Origin: Deltaproteobacteria bacterium
GTDB lineage: Bacteria; Desulfobacterota; Syntrophorhabdia; Syntrophorhabdales; Syntrophorhabdaceae
Length of the DNA: 64,000 nucleotides
Assembly (NCBI GenBank): GCA_022711595.1
Contig: JAKLET010000002.1
Span: 62,001-126,000, forward strand
Direction of reading: 5' to 3'
The position numbers and the translations under genes are program-made. The notes under the pieces were generated by a model. That model did not search any database and was not told the origin of the DNA. It saw only the letters and a program-made list of their open reading frames with translations. Below, in pieces: positions 47,947 through 56,079 of the stretch. Position 1 is the stretch's first letter, and each line of letters opens with the position of its first letter.

Positions 47947-48597
47947 TCATTTGCCCGCCCTGTCCTTGAGGGCGGTGCGAATGTCGCCTATGATCTGTCC
48001 GGAGAGCTTTTTCATTGCCTCGCTGAGTCCGGCCGCCAGCCCGTCGGGAGAATGCTCCCCTGTGGGGACCGAATGGGTGTATTGTTTCTGGAAGACGACC
48101 TGTTCGACGGGGTTTTTCTGGGCCGTATCGAGAAGGGTCACGCGCACGCTCAGGAGCGCCTTGTCGGGAGAGGTTTCCGTGGATTCGCAAAACTCGTCGA
48201 TGTGACCGTCCAGGATGTACCGCGACAGGTCGCTGTCATAGGAAGAGTATGTGCCTTTGAACAGCCCGGCCTCGGTGATGTCGCGAAGGATGAAACCGCT
48301 CACCATATCGGCAGGGTTCACGCGCCACCGGCTGTAATTGTATGTGTCATAGCGGTACGGCCGCGTCTTGATCACCATCGCGGTGGTATTGAAAGCGGGC
48401 GCCACGGAAAAACGCTCGACGCGGATGAGTTCGTCGAATTGCGCCGGTCCTTTAGCAGTCACCGCGGATGTGTAATCAAGGGTGTACTGGTCGATCACGT
48501 AAGGCGGTTTGGTCCTGCCGAAACAGCCCGTGATCAGCGTCAGGCAGAGAGTGGAGAAAAAGAAAAGCGCGAAGATGCGTTTTGCGGATAGTCTCAT
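47947..48597 (-). CDS. ABC-type transport auxiliary lipoprotein (PqiC-like)
   Basis: A 216-aa lipoprotein with lipobox LITGCFG (Cys near 24). YVIDQYTLDYTS and a beta-rich body (IRVERFSVAPAFNTTAMVIKTRPYRYDTYNYSRW), and SDLSRYILDGHIDEF are features of the ABC-type transport auxiliary component family (PqiC/YmbA-like), the outer-membrane-linked partners of MCE systems. The start at 48597 follows GAGGTG. It is the last gene of the Mla operon, 4 bp after mlaD, and probably links the periplasmic transporter to the outer membrane. Confidence 0.86.
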   Translation of the reverse strand: MRLSAKRIFALFFFSTLCLTLITGCFGRTKPPYVIDQYTLDYTSAVTAKGPAQFDELIRVERFSVAPAFNTTAMVIKTRPYRYDTYNYSRWRVNPADMVSGFILRDITEAGLFKGTYSSYDSDLSRYILDGHIDEFCESTETSPDKALLSVRVTLLDTAQKNPVEQVVFQKQYTHSVPTGEHSPDGLAAGLSEAMKKLSGQIIGDIRTALKDRAGK

Positions 48598-48601
48598 GTT
48601 T

Positions 48602-49525
48602 TCACCTCTTCTTGGGGGGTGGATCACTGAACAGGATGTCAGACGGGTCCGCCTTGAGCCTGTCTATGAGCAGGTCGAGGTTTTCCGATGCCCTGCGCAG
48701 GTTCTCGCTGGTTATCTGGACCTCCGTAGTGATGACCTTCGATCTGCGTGAGAGATCGTCGATGAGCCTGTTTGTCTTTGCCGTGGTCTCGGCGAGCTTC
48801 ATGTTGTTCAATTCTTCCTTGATCTTCTTTATCGTCGCTTTTGCTTCGCGTATCGTATCGCGAGCATCGGTTATGATCTCGTCAGCCCTGCCGTCGCCTA
48901 TCATCCTGGACAGCTTATTGGCTGAATCAGCGAGCGTGTCCGTCATGTTCTCGAGGTTGGTGATTATTTTGGTCATTTTCTGACCGCTGAAGAACTTGTT
49001 TATACTGGATGTCGCCGACACAAGCTCGTCCGAGATGGCCTTGAAATCCACTTTGTTAAGTTTTTTCACCACGTCGTCCACGCCGGAAACGATCTCCTGG
49101 ATCTCGGACGGGTTGGAAGGGATCAGCGGGTAATCGGGTTCGAAGTTGATCTGGGGCGTCCGTTCCACGTCCCCCTTTTTTCTGTGGTCGAGTTCAACGT
49201 AAACGATGCCCGTAATACCCGCCATCTTCAGTTTGGCGATCGTCTTGTTTGCCGCGTCGCCGGTGAAGTTGATCTTCATGACCACTTCAATGAGACGGTA
49301 ATCGGGGGCGACATTGATCTTTTCCACCATGCCGATGTCCACACCTCTGTATTTCACGCTGGAGTCGACCTGGAGGCCCTGGACGGATTCGTCGAAATAA
49401 GTGACAAAACGGTCACCTTTCTTTAAATATTGTGAAGCGCCGAGCCAGACAATGGTGCCCACCGCTATCAGGGTCCCCGCGAGCACGAAGAACCCCACCA
49501 GGAAATAGGTCTTCTTTTTTATCAT
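48602..49525 (-). CDS. mlaD: MCE-domain protein MlaD
   Basis: A 307-aa protein: an N-terminal membrane helix (about 6-27), an MCE domain (about 38-115, GLQVDSSVKYRGVDIGMVEKI, VVMKINFTGDAANKT, LKMAGITGIVYVELD) and a long helical, Lys/Asp-rich C-terminal part (ITNLENMTDTLADSANKLSRMI, DDLSRRSKVITTEVQ). MlaD forms the hexameric periplasmic ring of the Mla phospholipid transporter. The tail is longer than in E. coli MlaD (183 aa) and could build a tunnel as in other MCE proteins. It overlaps mlaF by ATGA. Confidence 0.92.
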   Translation of the reverse strand: MIKKKTYFLVGFFVLAGTLIAVGTIVWLGASQYLKKGDRFVTYFDESVQGLQVDSSVKYRGVDIGMVEKINVAPDYRLIEVVMKINFTGDAANKTIAKLKMAGITGIVYVELDHRKKGDVERTPQINFEPDYPLIPSNPSEIQEIVSGVDDVVKKLNKVDFKAISDELVSATSSINKFFSGQKMTKIITNLENMTDTLADSANKLSRMIGDGRADEIITDARDTIREAKATIKKIKEELNNMKLAETTAKTNRLIDDLSRRSKVITTEVQITSENLRRASENLDLLIDRLKADPSDILFSDPPPKKR

Positions 49526-50304
49526 GTCGTCATTCCTTCGTTCTTTTTCTCCGTCACGCGCCTGTTAAAGAAATCAGTCACCCTCGGATCGTCCGAATCT
49601 GTCCTGAGCTTGCGGGGGTCGCCCTCGGCGATGATGCCCCTGGCCTCCCTGTCGAGCATGATGATGCGGTGCGATATATTGAAGATGGTTTCCAGTTCGT
49701 GGGTGACGATGACCATGGTTGTACCGATGCCCTCGTTGAGCTTTTTTATGAGAACGTCAAGCTCGGCGGACGTCACCGGATCGAGCCCGGCCGAGGGTTC
49801 GTCAAGGAAGAGCATGGCAGGGTCGAGCGCCATCGCCCTTGCTATGCCGGCCCTTTTCTTCATGCCGCCGGAGAGCTCCGACGGGAAGTGATTGTCGTAT
49901 CCGGCAAGCTCTACCATGCCGAGCTTCATTTTCACGATCGATTCGATATCATCCGCGGGCAGTCCGGTGAATTCCGCCAGGGGAAGGGAAACGTTCTCGC
50001 CGATCGTCATGGAGCCGAAGAGGGCGCTTGACTGGAAAAGCATGCCGATGCCCATGTGGATCTTTCTGAGTTCCATGTCATCGAGCTCAGTCGTGTCTGT
50101 TCCGTTGATCCATATCCTTCCTTCAGCCGGGGTTTCGATGCCTATGATCTGCTTGAGGAGCGTCGATTTCCCGCACCCGCTGCCGCCCATGATGACAAAT
50201 ATCTCCCCTGCCCGTACCTCGAAGCTCACGTTGTCGAGGACGGTGTTGTCCCCGTATCTTACGGTGAGACCCTCAACCTTTATAACCGGCCCTTCAGTGT
50301 TCAC
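49522..50304 (-). CDS. mlaF: Mla transporter ATP-binding protein
   Basis: A 260-aa ABC ATPase. Walker A GGSGCGKST (40-48), signature LSGGMKKRAGIARAM, Walker B MLFLDEPSAGLDPV, H-loop VTHEL. It energises lipid movement by MlaFEDB. The GTG start follows GGGAGAG. It lies between mlaE and mlaD as in other genomes. Confidence 0.94.
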   Translation of the reverse strand: MNTEGPVIKVEGLTVRYGDNTVLDNVSFEVRAGEIFVIMGGSGCGKSTLLKQIIGIETPAEGRIWINGTDTTELDDMELRKIHMGIGMLFQSSALFGSMTIGENVSLPLAEFTGLPADDIESIVKMKLGMVELAGYDNHFPSELSGGMKKRAGIARAMALDPAMLFLDEPSAGLDPVTSAELDVLIKKLNEGIGTTMVIVTHELETIFNISHRIIMLDREARGIIAEGDPRKLRTDSDDPRVTDFFNRRVTEKKNEGMTT

Positions 50305-50329
50305 TGGTGTGTTCTCTCCCTGGAAGCCA

Positions 50330-51457
50330 TCATATATAATGCAGTATTATAGCAAAGGTCGAATCAATTACAATAATGAGAAATATGGAGGCAACAACGG
50401 CGGATGTCGTGGCGTTGCCGACGGCATCGGCCCCGCCGCGCACCTTGAAGCCCCGTTGACATCCGATCGCCGAAATGGCCATGGCGAATACGAAAGACTT
50501 TATAAGCCCCGATGTGATATCGAAGATCTCTATGGCCTTCATCGTTTGCTGGATATAGGTATATATGGTAAGGTCCAGTCCGAGGACCCCCACAATGAGC
50601 CCGCCCATGATCGCGAATATGCTGGAAAAGACGGTCAGGACAGGTACGACAAGGAGGGAGGCTATGACCTTGGGGATCGCCAGGAACTGCATGGGGCTGA
50701 ACCCCATTGTGGTCAGCGCGTCTACCTCTTCGTTCACCTTCATTGTGCCGATCTCCGCGGCAAAAGCGCTGCCGGAACGCCCGGCGACAATGATGGCGGT
50801 CATGATGGGGCCAAGTTCCCGAACCATTGCAACGGCCACAAGGGAGGCGACATAAATATTGGCGCCGAACTGTTTCAACTGCAGCGAAGACATGAAAGCC
50901 ATGATAAGGCCAAGCAGGAAACTGATGAGCCCCACGATGGGGAGGCCGTCGACGCCGACCTTTTTCATGTATGAAACTACATCGTTCCAGCGCACCTTTT
51001 TCAGGTGCGCCGCCGAATATACAAGGTCATAGAAGAGTTCGCCGGAGAAGGACACCACTTCATAGATGTCCTGAAGGGCCGACACTGTGCCGGCTCCCAG
51101 CTGTTCGACGATGCTCATGGGGCGTTCTTTTGTCGCCAGGCTGGGAGCGGAAAGGGACTGCCTGTCAATGAGACTCAGGATCCCCATTTTTTCTTTAGAC
51201 ATACCCGAGAGATTGAAGGGCACGGACCTTCTTTGCGCCTCGTCCTCGAGCCTGACAAGGAAAAGGGCCCCGCTGCTGTCCAGGTAGTCAACGCCCGCCA
51301 GGTCGACGGTCAGCTTTGCCGGGGTATGGGAATCGAAAATGGAGTCTATGCGGGAGGAGAGGTCGCCAAAGATATCGAGGCTTATCCTGCCTGACAGGAC
51401 AAGGGTAACATCTCCGCCGTTCGTACCTTCAATAGTGTACGGAGTTTCAGCAGACAT
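50330..51457 (-). CDS. mlaE: STAS-MlaE fusion permease
   Basis: A 375-aa protein: an N-terminal STAS domain (about 10-105, LVLSGRISLDIFGDLSSRID, VDLAGVDYLDSSGALFLV), i.e. an MlaB-like module, fused to an MlaE permease (about 125-375; SVLxxxF-like FSGELFYD, GLPIVGLISFLLGLIMAFMSS, RELGPIMTAIIVAGRSGSAFAAEIGTMKVNEEVDALTTMG). The fusion joins two subunits that are separate in E. coli. It has no ribosome site; the promoter at 51464-51492 places +1 on the ATG, suggesting a leaderless message for the operon mlaE-mlaF-mlaD-lipoprotein. Confidence 0.93.
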   Translation of the reverse strand: MSAETPYTIEGTNGGDVTLVLSGRISLDIFGDLSSRIDSIFDSHTPAKLTVDLAGVDYLDSSGALFLVRLEDEAQRRSVPFNLSGMSKEKMGILSLIDRQSLSAPSLATKERPMSIVEQLGAGTVSALQDIYEVVSFSGELFYDLVYSAAHLKKVRWNDVVSYMKKVGVDGLPIVGLISFLLGLIMAFMSSLQLKQFGANIYVASLVAVAMVRELGPIMTAIIVAGRSGSAFAAEIGTMKVNEEVDALTTMGFSPMQFLAIPKVIASLLVVPVLTVFSSIFAIMGGLIVGVLGLDLTIYTYIQQTMKAIEIFDITSGLIKSFVFAMAISAIGCQRGFKVRGGADAVGNATTSAVVASIFLIIVIDSTFAIILHYI

Positions 51458-51463
51458 GTGTTA

Positions 51464-51492
51464 TCTATAACATACCGGAAAGAAAATATGAA
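51464..51492 (-). promoter_or_regulatory. Promoter of the mla operon, leaderless
   Basis: On the minus strand TTCATA (51487-51492), 17 bp, TATAGA (51464-51469); the predicted +1 coincides with the A of the mlaE ATG at 51457. Confidence 0.45.
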
Positions 51493-51515
51493 CACCGGAA
51501 AGCCCATGATCTATT

Positions 51516-51583
51516 CGGTTTCTCTTGTTTCTTCGGATTTTTTCAGTTTCTTTGGTTAGTTGCAGACCAGACAAACCGATCCA
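51516..51583. repeat. Variant AACCAGA repeat region
   Basis: TCGGTTTCTCTTGTTTC, CAGTTTCTTTGGTTAGTT and GACCAGACAAACC are related to the dispersed 13-mer but with changes; it lies between mlaE and the sigma-54 regulator gene. Confidence 0.4.
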
Positions 51584-51598
51584 TGGGGTTCGGGCAGG

Positions 51599-52963
51599 TC
51601 AGCCTTCCGAGCGGCTCCCCTTTGTAATTTTGTATTTCTTGATCTTATACCGGAGCATGCGCTCGCTGAGGCCCAAAGACGCAGCGGCTTTTGTCTGTAC
51701 CCAGTCGGCGTTGACGAGGGCCTCGATGATCATCGTTTTTTCGATGGATTCGACGGTCCCGCGGATGCTCCCGTCGCTTCCGGCCATTGCCTGCTCGGCG
51801 AGGTTGGGCAGGTCCTCGCTCGTTATATGGTCGCCGCGGGTCAGGACTATGGCCCGCTCGATGATGTTCTCCAGCTCTCTCACGTTGCCGGGGTAATCGT
51901 ATTTGACCAGCACATCACGCGCTTCCCTTGTGAGGCCCTTGACGTTCTTTTTATGTTTGGAGTTGTATTTTTTCAGGAAAAAGTCGATGAGCAGGGGAAC
52001 GTCCTCCTTGCGCTCCCGAAGCGGCGGAATGAGTATGTTGACCACGTTGAGGCGGTAGAAGAGATCTTCTCTGAAGGTGCCTTTTTTTACCTCTTCATCG
52101 AGGTTTCTGTTCGTCGCCGCAATGATCCTCACATCGACCTTGACGGGCTGGACGCCGCCCAGGCGCTCGATCTCTTTCTCCTGAATGACCCTGAGGAGCT
52201 TCGATTGGAGGACAACGGGAATATCTCCTATCTCGTCAAGGAAGATGGTACCCTTGTTGGCAAGCTCGAACTTGCCCGCCTTTCTCTGGTAGGCTCCCGT
52301 GAATGCTCCCTTTTCGTATCCGAAAAGCTCGCTTTCCAAAAGGGTCTCGGGAATGGCCGCGCAGTTGACCTTGACAAGGGGAAAGGACTTGCGTTCGCTC
52401 AGGGCGTGGATCATATTGACGATTACCTCTTTGCCGACACCGCTCTCGCCGCTTATGATGCACGTCGAATCGGTCCTGGCGATACGCACCACAAGGCTTG
52501 ATACCTCGTGCATTTTTTCGCTGTGATAAACAAAATCTTCCGATTTGAACCGGTCTTTGAGGGTTTCGCGCAGGATCATATTCTCGCGGATGAGATATGT
52601 TTTTTCCTCGATCTTGCGGAGCTTGAAGAAAAGATCGTCAAGGTCGACGGGTTTCGTGAGGTATTCGGAGGCGCCGGCCTTCAGGGCGCCAACCGCGTTC
52701 TCGATGCTCCCGAAAGCGGTGATCATGACAACCTCGGTCGCCGGGTTTACCTCCTTTATCTTTTTAAGGAGAGTAAGGCCGTCCGTATCGGGCAGCTTGT
52801 AGTCGAGAAGGACGATCTCGAAGATCTCCTTTTGAAAAAGCGCGGCGGCGCTTTCCCCATCGGCCGCTTCACCCACGGTGTATCCTTCTTTCCTCAGAAG
52901 CCCGCCGAGAAGGGACCTCTGGGTTTCCTCGTCTTCCACTATCAATATGCTCACCCTGTCCAT
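51599..52963 (-). CDS. Sigma-54 response regulator (ZraR/NtrC type)
   Basis: A 454-aa regulator: receiver with VEDEE and Asp54 (LLDYKLPDTDG), AAA+ domain with GESGVGKE, GAFTGA and FLDEIGD, and a typical Fis-type end (TKAAASLGLSERMLRYKIKKYKI). It is last in the operon and follows its kinase. With the ZraP-like periplasmic genes upstream and a sigma-54 promoter at 55941-55956, it closely parallels the E. coli ZraPSR metal/envelope-stress system. It is probably an activator of its own operon. Confidence 0.94.
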   Translation of the reverse strand: MDRVSILIVEDEETQRSLLGGLLRKEGYTVGEAADGESAAALFQKEIFEIVLLDYKLPDTDGLTLLKKIKEVNPATEVVMITAFGSIENAVGALKAGASEYLTKPVDLDDLFFKLRKIEEKTYLIRENMILRETLKDRFKSEDFVYHSEKMHEVSSLVVRIARTDSTCIISGESGVGKEVIVNMIHALSERKSFPLVKVNCAAIPETLLESELFGYEKGAFTGAYQRKAGKFELANKGTIFLDEIGDIPVVLQSKLLRVIQEKEIERLGGVQPVKVDVRIIAATNRNLDEEVKKGTFREDLFYRLNVVNILIPPLRERKEDVPLLIDFFLKKYNSKHKKNVKGLTREARDVLVKYDYPGNVRELENIIERAIVLTRGDHITSEDLPNLAEQAMAGSDGSIRGTVESIEKTMIIEALVNADWVQTKAAASLGLSERMLRYKIKKYKITKGSRSEG

Positions 52964-52983: not shown

Positions 52984-54573
52984 TTACTTTTTCGCTGTTT
53001 TGATCTCGTCTTGTTTCAACGGCAGAACGATGGTGAAGGTGGTTCCCTGTCCGATCGTGCTGTTTGCCTTTATATCGCCCCCGTGGTCCTTGATTATCAT
53101 ATAGGATATGGGCAGCCCCAGGCCCATACCCTTATCTTTTGTTGTATAATAATATTCGAATATCCTGGAAAGGGACTTTTCATCGATGCCGGTGCCGGAG
53201 TCCCTGATCAATATTTCCAGAGAGGCGTCTTTTTTTCTTGTTGTCATGTCGATCTTTCCGCCGTCTTTCATAGACTCTATTCCGTTGATTATGATATTGT
53301 AAAAGGCCTGTTTGAGTCTGTCCCTCTGGCATTCGACGAAGATATCCGGATCCGCGGTGTTCTCGATGAATATACCCTTGGATGCGGCCTTCTCCCCCAC
53401 GATGATGATAACCTCTTCAATGATGTCGCGCAGACCTTCCCTGCTGAAAGGCGCCTGCGCCCTTGTTGATTGAAGGAATTCCTCGACGATCCTGTTGACC
53501 CTCGTGAGTTCTTTTTTGATTATATCAAGAAAGGTGGCATATTCATCTTTCTTTTCCTCTACCGGCTGGAATTCGCGCTTGAGGCGCTGCACGGAGAGGC
53601 TGATGGCGTTTAAGGGATTGCGGATCTCGTGGGCCATGCCGGAGGCCAGCTTGCCCAGCGAAACGAGGCGTTCCTTCACCTCCATCTCGCGCTCCATCTC
53701 TTTGACCTTCCTGGTATGTTTCCGCTCCATGATGAAAATGGCAAAGACGCTTCCCGCACCCGAAAAGAACAGGACTGACAGTATCAGGATAAAACTGATG
53801 GCAGTCCTCCGTATGGTGTCGCGCACGAGGTTCTGTGAGACATAGACTTCCATGCGATAGCCTGGAAGGAACCTGGAATCGAGAGAGCGTGAAACAACAA
53901 AGGTCCCAGCCCCGGCGTTGCTCGTTCCCACGAAGGGCCCTCCTTTTGCGTCAAATACTTTAATTGCGTTGATATTGAACCTTTTTTCCTCCCGTTCGAC
54001 GATGTCCTTGAGGATGACCTTTTTCCGGAGCGTGTCCAGCTCCCCGGGGTCGATGACAAAGAAAACGATGCGATCATGGAGCCGTCTGCCGAACAAAAGA
54101 CCCTTGTTTTTGCGGGAGGGCATCCTGATGACTGTCCGCTGTCCGCCTGAAAGGAGCTTGCCGAGGTCATCCGCGGGTACGGTCCCGTTGCCTTTTTTCG
54201 CCGTGATCCGTCCTGCAAGATCATATTCGATAATATTGTTGAAAGAAGGCTTGCCGGAGTCGGCATCCCAGGTTTTGCCCTCTGTGTATCCGATGGTGTT
54301 GTCGATATCGTCGACTATCCCCTCGTCGAAGACCATTATGTTGAAAAAGTAGGGCGTGATGATCGCGGGGGACCTGTCGAGAAGGCTCAGATATTCAAGG
54401 TTGATGTCTATCTCCCTCTTGACATGGGAAAAGACGATCTCGGCTTCGCCGGAGAGCTGCTGTTCGATATTATTTTTAATTATCCTGATCTGGAAAAAGC
54501 CTGTCAGGGTGATAAGGATCAGGAAGATTACGAAAAGCAGTGATGGAAAGACAAGCGTCCGTTTATCTCCCAT
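52984..54573 (-). CDS. Membrane sensor histidine kinase (ZraS-like)
   Basis: A 529-aa kinase: helix 1 (about 8-27), a large periplasmic sensor region (about 28-240), helix 2 (about 250-270), coiled linker, H-box LASGMAHEIRNPLNAIS, N-box FYNIIINGIES, G1 RDSGTGID, G2 GMGLGLPI. The start at 54573 overlaps the end of the Spy/CpxP-like gene by 11 bp. In the family the periplasmic ZraP partner represses the kinase until the envelope is stressed. Its gene precedes the sigma-54 regulator by 20 bp. Confidence 0.92.
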   Translation of the reverse strand: MGDKRTLVFPSLLFVIFLILITLTGFFQIRIIKNNIEQQLSGEAEIVFSHVKREIDINLEYLSLLDRSPAIITPYFFNIMVFDEGIVDDIDNTIGYTEGKTWDADSGKPSFNNIIEYDLAGRITAKKGNGTVPADDLGKLLSGGQRTVIRMPSRKNKGLLFGRRLHDRIVFFVIDPGELDTLRKKVILKDIVEREEKRFNINAIKVFDAKGGPFVGTSNAGAGTFVVSRSLDSRFLPGYRMEVYVSQNLVRDTIRRTAISFILILSVLFFSGAGSVFAIFIMERKHTRKVKEMEREMEVKERLVSLGKLASGMAHEIRNPLNAISLSVQRLKREFQPVEEKKDEYATFLDIIKKELTRVNRIVEEFLQSTRAQAPFSREGLRDIIEEVIIIVGEKAASKGIFIENTADPDIFVECQRDRLKQAFYNIIINGIESMKDGGKIDMTTRKKDASLEILIRDSGTGIDEKSLSRIFEYYYTTKDKGMGLGLPISYMIIKDHGGDIKANSTIGQGTTFTIVLPLKQDEIKTAKK

Positions 54574-54979
54574 ATCGTCTCGGGTTGAAGCGATTGGGGT
54601 TTTTCCTGCGCTCCTGATCACAGAAGCTGTTGTAATGCTCCCGCTGCCTGTCGTTGAGAGTTCGTGAAACCTCGCCGCGGTATTGCTGGTAGAGATTGTG
54701 CTTTGCCGTATCCAGTTCCTGTATCTCCCCCTGGACCCTCCCCATCCTTTCTGTGTTGGCCCGGGGGTTTCTGCTGAGTTCCCTCAGTTCCAGCCGCTTT
54801 TTCATGGATTCCTGCCGGAGGGATTGAAATTCGTTTGTATACCTGTTCCTGATGCCCTCGATCTGTGTCCTTTGGGGATTTGAAAGGCCGAGCCCCCTCT
54901 CGAACTCGGAATAAGAATTCTGAGCATAAAGAGGGGGCGCGATCAAAAAACACAGAATGAAGAAGGCCGGAAGTTTCAT
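54563..54979 (-). CDS. Spy/CpxP-like periplasmic protein
   Basis: A 138-aa exported protein with signal peptide (about 1-20), then a helical part (LGLSNPQRTQIEGIRNRYTNEFQSLRQESMKKRLELREL, EIQELDTAKHNLYQQYRGEVSRTLNDRQREHYNSF), the usual two long helices of LTXXQ-motif chaperones. The C-terminus is Arg/Asn-rich (RRKNPNRFNPRRYGR). Start at 54979, because this ATG overlaps the TAA of the upstream gene by one base. It is the third gene of the ZraP-like operon; it may chaperone or bind metal. Confidence 0.8.
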   Translation of the reverse strand: MKLPAFFILCFLIAPPLYAQNSYSEFERGLGLSNPQRTQIEGIRNRYTNEFQSLRQESMKKRLELRELSRNPRANTERMGRVQGEIQELDTAKHNLYQQYRGEVSRTLNDRQREHYNSFCDQERRKNPNRFNPRRYGR

Positions 54980-55362
54980 TAAGGATTGACAGGTACCCAT
55001 ACCTTATGAGCGGGGACCCATTTCCCTCCTATCCACTGGCCCGGCACCTGTACCCATTGTCCCGGAGGAGCTTCCTGCTGATCCGGCGGCGTGGTGGCAG
55101 TCATGCCGGGCTGAGTGCCCACTGCCTTCTGCTGATTTGTCACGTGCTGGTCAACAGCGTTGCCGGCCACTCCTCCTACAAGGGTTCCCACTGCTGCTCC
55201 AATAAGGGTTGATGCCGTATCGTGCCCGATCACCTGCCCTGCGATGGCGCCGAGGCCGGCACCAATAGCGGCACCTTTCTGCATATTATATCCTTCCGAG
55301 GCGCAGGAAATAAGAAAAAAACCTGCCAAAATCACAAGTAATGTTAAAAAGGCCCTTTTCAT
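54979..55362 (-). CDS. Glycine-zipper lipoprotein
   Basis: A 127-aa lipoprotein: lipobox LISC (Cys near 20), then GAAIGAGLGAIAGQVIGHDTASTLIGAAVGTLVGGVAGNAVD, a glycine-zipper hairpin, and a Pro/Trp-rich C-terminal end (PPGQWVQVPGQWIGGKWVPAHKVWVPVNP, in outline a YXWxP-like repeat). Glycine-zipper lipoproteins sit in the outer membrane and affect its integrity. It is the second gene of the stress operon, whose spacing is 65 bp from the first. Confidence 0.85.
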   Translation of the reverse strand: MKRAFLTLLVILAGFFLISCASEGYNMQKGAAIGAGLGAIAGQVIGHDTASTLIGAAVGTLVGGVAGNAVDQHVTNQQKAVGTQPGMTATTPPDQQEAPPGQWVQVPGQWIGGKWVPAHKVWVPVNP

Positions 55363-55427
55363 CTACTCCCTCCCTTTTCTTTTTATTGCGGCGGGCCTTG
55401 CCGGCGCCCGCCGCAACTGTTTGTTGA

Positions 55428-55895
55428 TCAGAACCTGCCGCAAGGGCCGCCGCGTGAACCGCGGTGGTAGCCGCCGCCAAAGCCTTTACCGTAACCTTTG
55501 TCAGCAAGCGTCTTGAGCTGATCGGGTGTATACACCTTTCTCTGTTCCAGCTTGAACTGGACCATCCTGTCGTGCATCTTCTGTCTTAATGTATTGACCT
55601 CTTTCTCCTTTGCCAGGATCGCACCGTCGGTTGCTTTCGGGTCCGCGTAGAGTGCCCTTAGCTCACCCCGCTTCTGAAAAAGCTCATAACGCAGGGATGA
55701 AGTTTCGTTATTGAACTTTTCCTTGAGCTGCCACATTTTGTCCATCTGTTCCTTGGAAAGATTCACGCCTGCACCGGGTCCGTACCCTTTCGGTCCGCCC
55801 CCGAAGCCTCCGCCTGTTCCCGGCCCGATAGCTAACGCGGCCGTGGCAACCGCCAGGAACATGATCACCGTAATGATACCCAAAACCTTCTTCAT
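55428..55895 (-). CDS. ZraP-like periplasmic zinc/stress chaperone
   Basis: A 155-aa exported protein: signal peptide ending near ALA (residue 23), a Gly-rich stretch (GTGGGFGGGPKGYGPG), two helices (LSKEQMDKMWQLKEKFNNETSSLRYELFQKRGELRAL and ILAKEKEVNTLRQKMHDRMVQFKLEQRKVYTPDQLKTL) and a His/Gly/Cys-rich end (GGYHRGSRGGPCGRF), the ZraP layout. E. coli ZraP binds zinc and represses the ZraSR pair. GGAGG precedes the ATG at 55895. It is the promoter-proximal gene, behind the sigma-54 promoter at 55941-55956. Confidence 0.88.
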   Translation of the reverse strand: MKKVLGIITVIMFLAVATAALAIGPGTGGGFGGGPKGYGPGAGVNLSKEQMDKMWQLKEKFNNETSSLRYELFQKRGELRALYADPKATDGAILAKEKEVNTLRQKMHDRMVQFKLEQRKVYTPDQLKTLADKGYGKGFGGGYHRGSRGGPCGRF

Positions 55896-55940
55896 TGTAA
55901 CCTCCTCGTATGGTTTTTTGCAAATCATGGCTGTGATTAA

Positions 55941-55956
55941 GGCAATAACCGTGCCA
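55941..55956 (-). promoter_or_regulatory. Sigma-54 promoter of the ZraP-like operon
   Basis: On the minus strand TGGCACG-GTTA-TTGCC matches TGGCACG-N4-TTGC at every conserved base; GG and GC are 12 bp apart. Transcription would start near 55930. Confidence 0.88.
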
Positions 55957-56027
55957 TTTACAATGTGCGTCTATAACAAGCTGTTATTATTGATTTAATA
56001 AAAAAGAAAGGTCTTGAGGCAGCAATG

Positions 56028-56079
56028 TGTCGAGGAAATAAATGTCGATGGGTTGGGTGTATGTCGACAATAATGTCGC
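56028..56079. promoter_or_regulatory. Cluster of TGTCG repeats, candidate upstream activating sites
   Basis: TGTCGA at 56028-56033, 56043-56048 and 56062-56067 and TGTCGC at 56074-56079; the third forms the palindrome TGTCGACA. They lie about 100-150 bp upstream of the sigma-54 start. Confidence 0.5.

What the first reader, a model, noticed from the sequence alone, without database searches (positions are those of the whole stretch)
55428..56079. ZraPSR-like stress operon rearranged as five co-directional genes behind a perfect sigma-54 promoter
In E. coli zraP is divergent from zraSR. Here ZraP-like, glycine-zipper lipoprotein, Spy/CpxP-like, kinase and regulator form one run, with TGGCACGGTTATTGCC upstream and four TGTCG repeats (56028-56079) beyond it as candidate sites for the regulator. 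The mla operon follows directly, tying envelope stress to lipid transport by position.
Basis: partly seen in the sequence, partly recalled or inferred. Interest (0 to 1): 0.55.

Follow-up and report, generated by a model that had tools for sequence, protein, structure and literature searches.

The report
Envelope-stress regulon with enhancer-driven small RNA
The window holds a self-regulating bacterial stress-sensing operon whose switch, a pair of probable regulator binding sites in front of a sigma-54 promoter, is conserved among related anaerobic bacteria and also sits in front of several other envelope genes and a probable small regulatory RNA.

Summary
Five genes (ZraP-like, glycine-zipper lipoprotein, Spy-like, sensor kinase, NtrC-type regulator) follow a sigma-54 promoter (55942-55956, minus strand). 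The conserved sites are not four direct TGTCG repeats. They are one palindrome, CGACA-N4-TGTCG (56065-56078), plus a half-palindrome 31 bp nearer the promoter (56034-56047). Both, with the sigma-54 site, are in all 29 upstream regions examined (own plus 28 relatives). The same double site plus promoter precedes four other loci in this genome (one with small deviations) and many in relatives, with almost no control hits: small envelope proteins, a FecR/DUF6600 protein and a probable non-coding RNA beside der. That RNA ends in a hairpin with an invariant C-rich loop and may have replaced a decayed exported-protein gene. I read it as a sigma-54 envelope-stress system that works like ZraPSR, QseEGF-GlmY and Cpx/CpxQ without meeting the ZraPSR or QseEGF tests. 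The mla link is weak: 12 of 18 evaluable relatives. The organism is close to Syntrophorhabdus. No expression data exist here.

The parts
56065..56078 (-). UAS1: palindromic upstream activating site CGACA-N4-TGTCG (here CGACATTATTGTCG)
   Evidence: Single palindrome in the window. GAC and TGTC invariant in 29 of 29 upstream regions, own included.
56034..56047 (-). UAS2: degenerate half-palindromic site CGACATTTATTTCC, 31 bp downstream of UAS1
   Evidence: TCGACA in 29 of 29, CC in 29 and 27 of 29; UAS1-UAS2 distance 29-32 bp in all 29.
55942..55956 (-). sigma-54 promoter TGGCACGGTTATTGC (-24/-12)
   Evidence: Only exact match in the window. TGGCA and TGC in 29 of 29 upstream regions. One Sigma54_DBD match in the genome.
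55428..55892 (-). ZraP-like periplasmic protein (Metal_resist), 154 aa
   Evidence: Pfam PF13801 3.9e-11. NCBIfam ZraP model 39.1 bits against cut-off 200. PDB 3lay ZraP 1.3e-10.
54979..55362 (-). glycine-zipper lipoprotein with conserved tail PPGQWV-x-PGQW-xGGKWVPAHKVWVPVNP
   Evidence: Pfam Gly-zipper_YMGG 5.8e-10; alignment with 20 orthologs.
54563..55000 (-). Spy/CpxP-like small periplasmic protein, overlapping its neighbours (translational coupling likely)
   Evidence: Pfam Metal_resist 1.1e-6 (29.3 bits, cut-off 29.2); LTXXQ 1.2e-4, below its cut-off. No PDB sequence match.
52984..54573 (-). sensor histidine kinase with a periplasmic, double-Cache-like sensor
   Evidence: HisKA + HATPase. 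Model of residues 1-270, pLDDT 80.3; best PDB match is the KinD sensor, E 7.4e-7 but TM about 0.3.
51599..52963 (-). NtrC-type response regulator (receiver, sigma-54 AAA+, Fis-type HTH)
   Evidence: Pfam. NCBIfam AtoC 475.8 bits (cut-off 714), ZraR 419.3 (cut-off 760). SERMLRYK in the HTH invariant in the 10 aligned.
47947..51457 (-). mlaE(STAS)-mlaF-mlaD-ABC auxiliary lipoprotein: neighbour in this genus, not a constant part of the system
   Evidence: Pfam; directly downstream in 12 of 18 evaluable relatives; 141-bp gap.

Best explanation
This is an autoregulated, sigma-54-dependent envelope-stress system. The kinase senses a periplasmic signal through a double-Cache-like domain, probably modulated by the ZraP-like and Spy-like proteins. 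It phosphorylates the NtrC-type regulator, which binds a palindrome (UAS1) and a half-palindrome (UAS2), about 31 bp or three helical turns apart, starting 108-134 and 77-103 bp upstream of the -24 element, and activates sigma-54 polymerase. Targets are its own operon and a regulon of small envelope proteins, a FecR/DUF6600 protein and a probable non-coding RNA. Shown from sequence: gene order, sites, spacing, their conservation, and their recurrence at other loci. Inferred: that this regulator binds these sites, that the signal is envelope damage, and that the RNA is made and acts on mRNAs.
For: Sites and promoter in 29 of 29 upstream regions, own plus 28 relatives. UAS1 + sigma-54 pattern: 54 hits in 32 of 60 genomes, reversed control 0. 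UAS2 + sigma-54 pattern: 65 hits in 27 of 60, reversed control 1. Phylum sample: 9 of 10 genomes of the family (own included) and 4 of 287 others have a hit, control 0. In 62 distinct full sites the UAS spacer is 9-13 bp (43 of 62 are 11) and the UAS2-promoter gap falls in two classes, 61-65 (12) and 71-77 (50), none at 66-70: one helical turn. By my reading the targets are mostly exported or envelope proteins. Regulator HTH conserved; rpoN present.
Against: No binding, expression or mutant data. Other NtrC-type regulators of the genome were not looked for or tested for the same site. The palindrome alone with up to 2 mismatches is hardly enriched genome-wide (28 sites against 20 in control), so the claim rests on the combination. 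Orthologs share spacing, so the spacing classes are not independent. Of ten more distant loci looked at, five lack a UAS1-type palindrome upstream or could not be placed, among them L238, which has kinase, regulator and sigma-54 site. The signal is inferred from gene content only.
Confidence: 0.82

Rival explanations
1. One reading: a rearranged ZraPSR with four direct TGTCG sites, functionally coupled to the mla lipid-transport operon by read-through.
For: The four TGTCG exist. mla follows after 141 bp here and directly in 12 of 18 evaluable relatives. No terminator-like site was found between regulator and mlaE in the window. In G021 a second mlaE gene and what reads as an mlaF lie about 0.7 kb behind one such promoter.
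Against: The copies at 56062 and 56028 are in 2 and 1 of 29 upstream regions. 6 of 18 evaluable relatives lack mla there while keeping the rest. A GTTATAGATA stretch sits just before mlaE in 9 of 12 relatives, and GC-rich hairpins follow the regulator in several.
Confidence: 0.15
2. The conserved sites bind a different regulator of the family, and the operon's own regulator acts elsewhere.
For: No binding data. The regulator scores better against the AtoC than the ZraR model, so similarity names no site. L239, outside the order, has the palindrome before a ZraP-like gene but no kinase or regulator match in the 5.5 kb taken.
Against: The sites precede the regulator's own operon in all 29 upstream regions and also operons of the same kind without zraP (L096, L097, L122, L125), and are nearly confined to the family.
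Confidence: 0.1
3. The promoter beside der drives no functional RNA; the hairpin is only a terminator, possibly shared with der.
For: No transcript data. Pair changes are few: 2 pairs, one sequence each, reached by 24 of 500 shuffles. T runs after the hairpin are poor in four of eight sequences (L078, L079, L081, L084). No Hfq match in this genome. No Rfam match in the seven loci scanned. No enrichment of loop-complementary sites: 146 against 172 in control.
Against: The full UAS1-sigma-54 promoter stands there in 8 of 12 genus genomes including this one, with no shared reading frame behind it. The 12-base loop, which termination does not need, is invariant in all 8 aligned.
Confidence: 0.3

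Closest known systems
ZraPSR (E. coli/Salmonella)
   Same: ZraP-family periplasmic protein, kinase and sigma-54-activating regulator; sigma-54 promoter before zraP; envelope stress.
   Different: In Salmonella zraP and zraSR have divergent promoters (PMC4987338, passages); here one operon with two extra genes. ZraP, ZraS and ZraR models fall far below cut-off. C-terminal histidines are not conserved (their role as zinc ligands is recalled). The kinase sensor models as double-Cache-like.
QseE/QseF-QseG with GlmY sRNA (E. coli)
   Same: Kinase + lipoprotein + NtrC-type regulator in one operon; sigma-54 activation of a small RNA and of envelope homeostasis (PMC6075780, passages including the abstract).
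   Different: The GlrR(QseF) site is listed as TGTC(N)10GACA (PMC4987338, table passage); here the polarity is opposite, GACA-N4-TGTC. QseE has a helical periplasmic domain (PMC6075780, passage). No Rfam family matches the RNA locus.
Cpx response with CpxP and CpxQ
   Same: CpxP-like protein under its own stress system; an sRNA from the 3' end of a stress-induced periplasmic-protein transcript (PMC4817254, abstract and section list seen).
   Different: Cpx does not use sigma-54 (recalled). Here the RNA stands without an intact frame in 11 of the 12 such promoters, by my reading.
Desulfovibrio vulgaris DVU1419 and DVU3381 regulons
   Same: sigma-54-dependent response regulators filed under envelope stress; DVU1419 also targets an ncRNA (PMC4641369, table passages; PMC3333781, passages). 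Same phylum (recalled).
   Different: Their motifs were not in the text seen (figures not held), so sites and orthology were not compared; no ZraP-Spy-kinase-regulator operon is described in the passages seen.

Membership tests
ZraPSR | ZraP, ZraS, ZraR equivalog scores | tested here: not met
   39.1/200, 192.2/479 and 419.3/760 bits against cut-offs
ZraPSR | zraP divergent from zraSR | tested here: not met
   Co-directional in the window and in 20 of 20 relatives
ZraPSR | sigma-54 promoter with activator-type sites upstream of zraP | tested here: met
   binding itself not testable
ZraPSR | conserved zinc ligands in ZraP | tested here: inconclusive
   C-terminal Cys in 16 of 21 aligned rows, His there in few, by my reading; which residues bind zinc is recalled, binding not testable
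QseEGF-GlmY | TGTC-N10-GACA sites and a glmY-type RNA | tested here: not met
   Sites are GACA-N4-TGTC; no Rfam match at the RNA locus
NtrC-type sigma-54 activation | AAA+ domain with Fis-type HTH, tandem upstream sites, -24/-12 promoter, rpoN | tested here: met
trans-acting sRNA | expressed, no conserved ORF, acts on mRNA | tested here: inconclusive
   No shared ORF; no enrichment of complementary sites, weak duplex signal; expression not testable

The most novel reading that the evidence does not exclude
A family-wide sigma-54 envelope-stress regulon includes a small RNA caught in the act of being born: a regulon member encoding a small exported protein lost its reading frame, in this genome leaving a 55-codon remnant, while its enhancer-driven promoter and 3' C-rich hairpin were kept and fixed as a stand-alone RNA whose invariant loop can pair with Shine-Dalgarno sequences of co-regulated envelope genes.
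Probability: 0.35. Interest if true: 0.72.

Novelty: new variant of a known kind. Interest (0 to 1): 0.55.

Why it matters
It gives a little-studied syntrophic branch of Thermodesulfobacteriota a concrete, testable envelope-stress response that runs through sigma-54. A 2016 review lists the ZraR binding site of Salmonella as not known (PMC4987338, table passage); here a ZraP-containing system has a sharply defined site, a spacing rule and a predicted regulon. The locus beside der offers a comparative series from protein-coding transcript to stand-alone small RNA under one conserved promoter.

Tried and rejected
Palindrome alone, up to 2 mismatches, own genome: 28 sites against 20 in the reversed control, so not informative by itself; the window's own site is not in that list because its outer bases deviate.

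Exact TGGCAC-N5-TTGC sites in the own genome: 11 against 9 in control. Of the eight whose upstream DNA I printed, only C12, C24 and C34 show the double site by eye; the other three were not inspected.

Targets of the C-rich loop: GGAGGAAGGGGTA with up to 1 mismatch in 12 genus genomes gave 146 matches, nine of them the RNA locus itself, against 172 in control. Seven perfect hits lie elsewhere, apparently not orthologous; four are at starts of apparently exported proteins by my reading. Duplex energies put the ten YVYPY-family starts of the genus in the best 4-15% of 234 background starts, the own gene at 7%; the operon's own zraP start is unremarkable (26%). Suggestive only.

Hfq: no match in this genome. 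Rfam: no match in the seven loci scanned. Promoter and terminator scans at 51400-51700 found nothing, so the promoter-like stretch before mlaE rests on conservation alone. No shared reading frame at the RNA locus.

Full report
What is in the window. On the minus strand five genes follow one another: ZraP-like (55428-55892), glycine-zipper lipoprotein (54979-55362), Spy-like (54563-55000), histidine kinase (52984-54573) and NtrC-type regulator (51599-52963), with gaps of 65, -22, -11 and 20 bp. mlaE starts after 141 bp and is followed by mlaF, mlaD and an ABC auxiliary lipoprotein. Divergently lie a thiD-thiN fusion and, by recalled likeness, thiC. The window is G000:C12:62001-126000 of a 3.5-Mb genome.

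The promoter and the repeats. Across relatives something else is conserved. ZraP-like genes were found in 47 of 60 genomes, own included. Thirty loci were kept; one (L031) begins at a contig end and was dropped, leaving 29 upstream regions, the window's own and 28 relatives'. All 29 carry the sigma-54 site, a palindrome (UAS1, core CGAC-R-N4-TGTCG with rare deviations) and a half-palindrome (UAS2, TCGACATTTNTTNCC). In the window UAS1 is 56065-56078 and UAS2 56034-56047. The UAS1-UAS2 distance is 29-32 bp in all 29.

A regulon, with controls. UAS1 followed at 88-118 bp by a sigma-54 site gave 54 hits in 32 of 60 genomes and none for the reversed pattern. UAS2 followed at 60-89 bp gave 65 hits in 27 of 60, reversed control 1. 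In 297 genomes of the phylum, 9 of 10 members of the family (own included) had a hit and 4 of 287 others, control 0. Among 62 distinct full sites in the loci held, the gap from UAS2 to the promoter is 61-65 in 12 and 71-77 in 50, with none at 66-70 (its pattern allowed 40-110, while the searches that fetched most loci allowed about 58-87), as expected if the activator must lie on one face of the helix. Orthologs share spacing, so these are not 62 independent events; the short class is eight FecR-type promoters and four zraP/Spy-type ones.

Targets. By my reading the 54 hits are: 23 in front of zraP- or Spy-kinase-type operons, 12 at the locus beside der, and 19 elsewhere. Among the 19 are small glycine-zipper or other exported proteins, four of which (L090, L092, L093, L115) share the PPG-W...WVPVNP tail of the operon's lipoprotein; a small zinc-ribbon-like protein (three genomes); membrane-fusion, outer-membrane-efflux and ABC genes (L117, L118, L128); a trypsin-like, HtrA-type protease as second gene (L121); and a second mlaE (L119). 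Some of the 19 may be chance. In the window's own genome five promoters carry the architecture: the operon; C24:36218-36355 (RNA locus); C23:55500 (about 108-aa glycine-zipper YVYPY protein, no Pfam match); C45:75300 (760-aa FecR/DUF6600 protein); and, with small deviations, C34:47794 (96-aa glycine-zipper-like protein, no Pfam match).

The RNA locus. In the genus the promoter beside der is followed by no shared reading frame but by a module of two hairpins; the second has a 12-base loop UUACCCCUUCCU invariant in the eight aligned. A covariance model from those eight finds the locus in 9 of 12 genus genomes at E below 1e-20; the only strong hit not used to build it is G009. Four further hits, G007 in the genus and three outside it, are weak (E 0.008-0.05). 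Covariation is slight: two pairs, one sequence each, 24 of 500 shuffles as high. The gene on the far side of the hairpin is der and the one behind the promoter is a XerC-like recombinase (below the XerC cut-off), followed by hslV in the own genome; der and the recombinase are also seen in L079, L151 and, in genus g8, L131. In g8, L131 carries a 112-aa exported-protein frame followed by a C-rich hairpin, while three other genomes have the hairpin directly behind the promoter. In the window's genome the stretch between promoter and hairpin contains a 55-codon remnant resembling that protein: local score 51 in the best of three frames, none of 500 shuffles as high (maximum 48); the other two frames show nothing. 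This fits a protein-coding regulon member turning into a non-coding RNA, but the margin is narrow, expression is unproved, T runs are poor in four of eight, and Hfq was not found.

mla. mlaE directly follows the regulator in 12 of 20 relatives' loci and is absent in 6; in L049 only a fragment is seen at the contig end, and L056 cannot be judged. A GTTATAGATA stretch lies just before mlaE in the window and in 9 of the 12. No terminator or consensus sigma-70 promoter was called there. Read-through is possible but the tie is lineage-specific.

Comparison with the known. The regulator scores higher with AtoC than with ZraR and reaches neither cut-off; ZraP and ZraS models are missed by a wide margin. 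ZraP structure 3lay is nonetheless the best solved relative of the first protein. The kinase's periplasmic part models as a long helix with two alpha/beta modules and matches the KinD sensor best, at TM-scores of about 0.3 over the whole chain; that KinD is a double Cache is recalled. The five-gene order holds in 20 of 20 relatives. Of ten more distant loci, five have a UAS1-type palindrome upstream of the ZraP-like gene: L236, L237, L241, L242, of two other families of the order, with Spy, kinase and regulator behind (L236 also the lipoprotein; L241 only a near sigma-54 match), and L239, of another family of the phylum, without kinase or regulator match; L238, L240, L243 and L245 lack it, and L244 gave no ZraP match. 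In print, D. vulgaris DVU1419 is a sigma-54-dependent regulator assigned to envelope stress with an ncRNA target (PMC4641369 table passages; PMC3333781 passages), so this kind of circuit has a mapped precedent; sites and orthology were not compared. Searches for Syntrophorhabd with RpoN and with envelope stress (listings only) gave three papers, none of which by title and abstract start describes this.

Verdict. The value lies in the regulon and in the probable RNA.

Noticed in passing
55386-55416 (minus strand): A GC-rich hairpin (11-bp stem by eye) just after the ZraP-like stop codon, without a T run: a candidate for setting zraP mRNA levels above those of the downstream genes.
   Followed up: no
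1005-1062: Rfam nhaA-I RNA motif, 53 bits against gathering score 37.
   Followed up: no
L119 (G021:C171): A second mlaE (and an mlaF-like gene) lies about 0.7 kb behind the same type of enhancer and sigma-54 promoter, with a stretch between that resembles the decayed small frame.
   Followed up: partly
51457-51490: mlaE shows no obvious Shine-Dalgarno sequence; a GTTATAGATA stretch ends within about 10 bases of its start in the window and several relatives, which could mean a leaderless transcript.
   Followed up: partly
L114:5592-6737: A Beta-lactamase-family (PF00144) gene sits between der and the RNA locus in the window's own genome, not in L079, L151 or L131.
   Followed up: partly
L239 (G052, another family of the phylum): A CGACA-N4-TGTCG palindrome lies upstream of a ZraP-like gene there, with a near-match sigma-54 site, hinting that the architecture extends beyond the order.
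   Followed up: no
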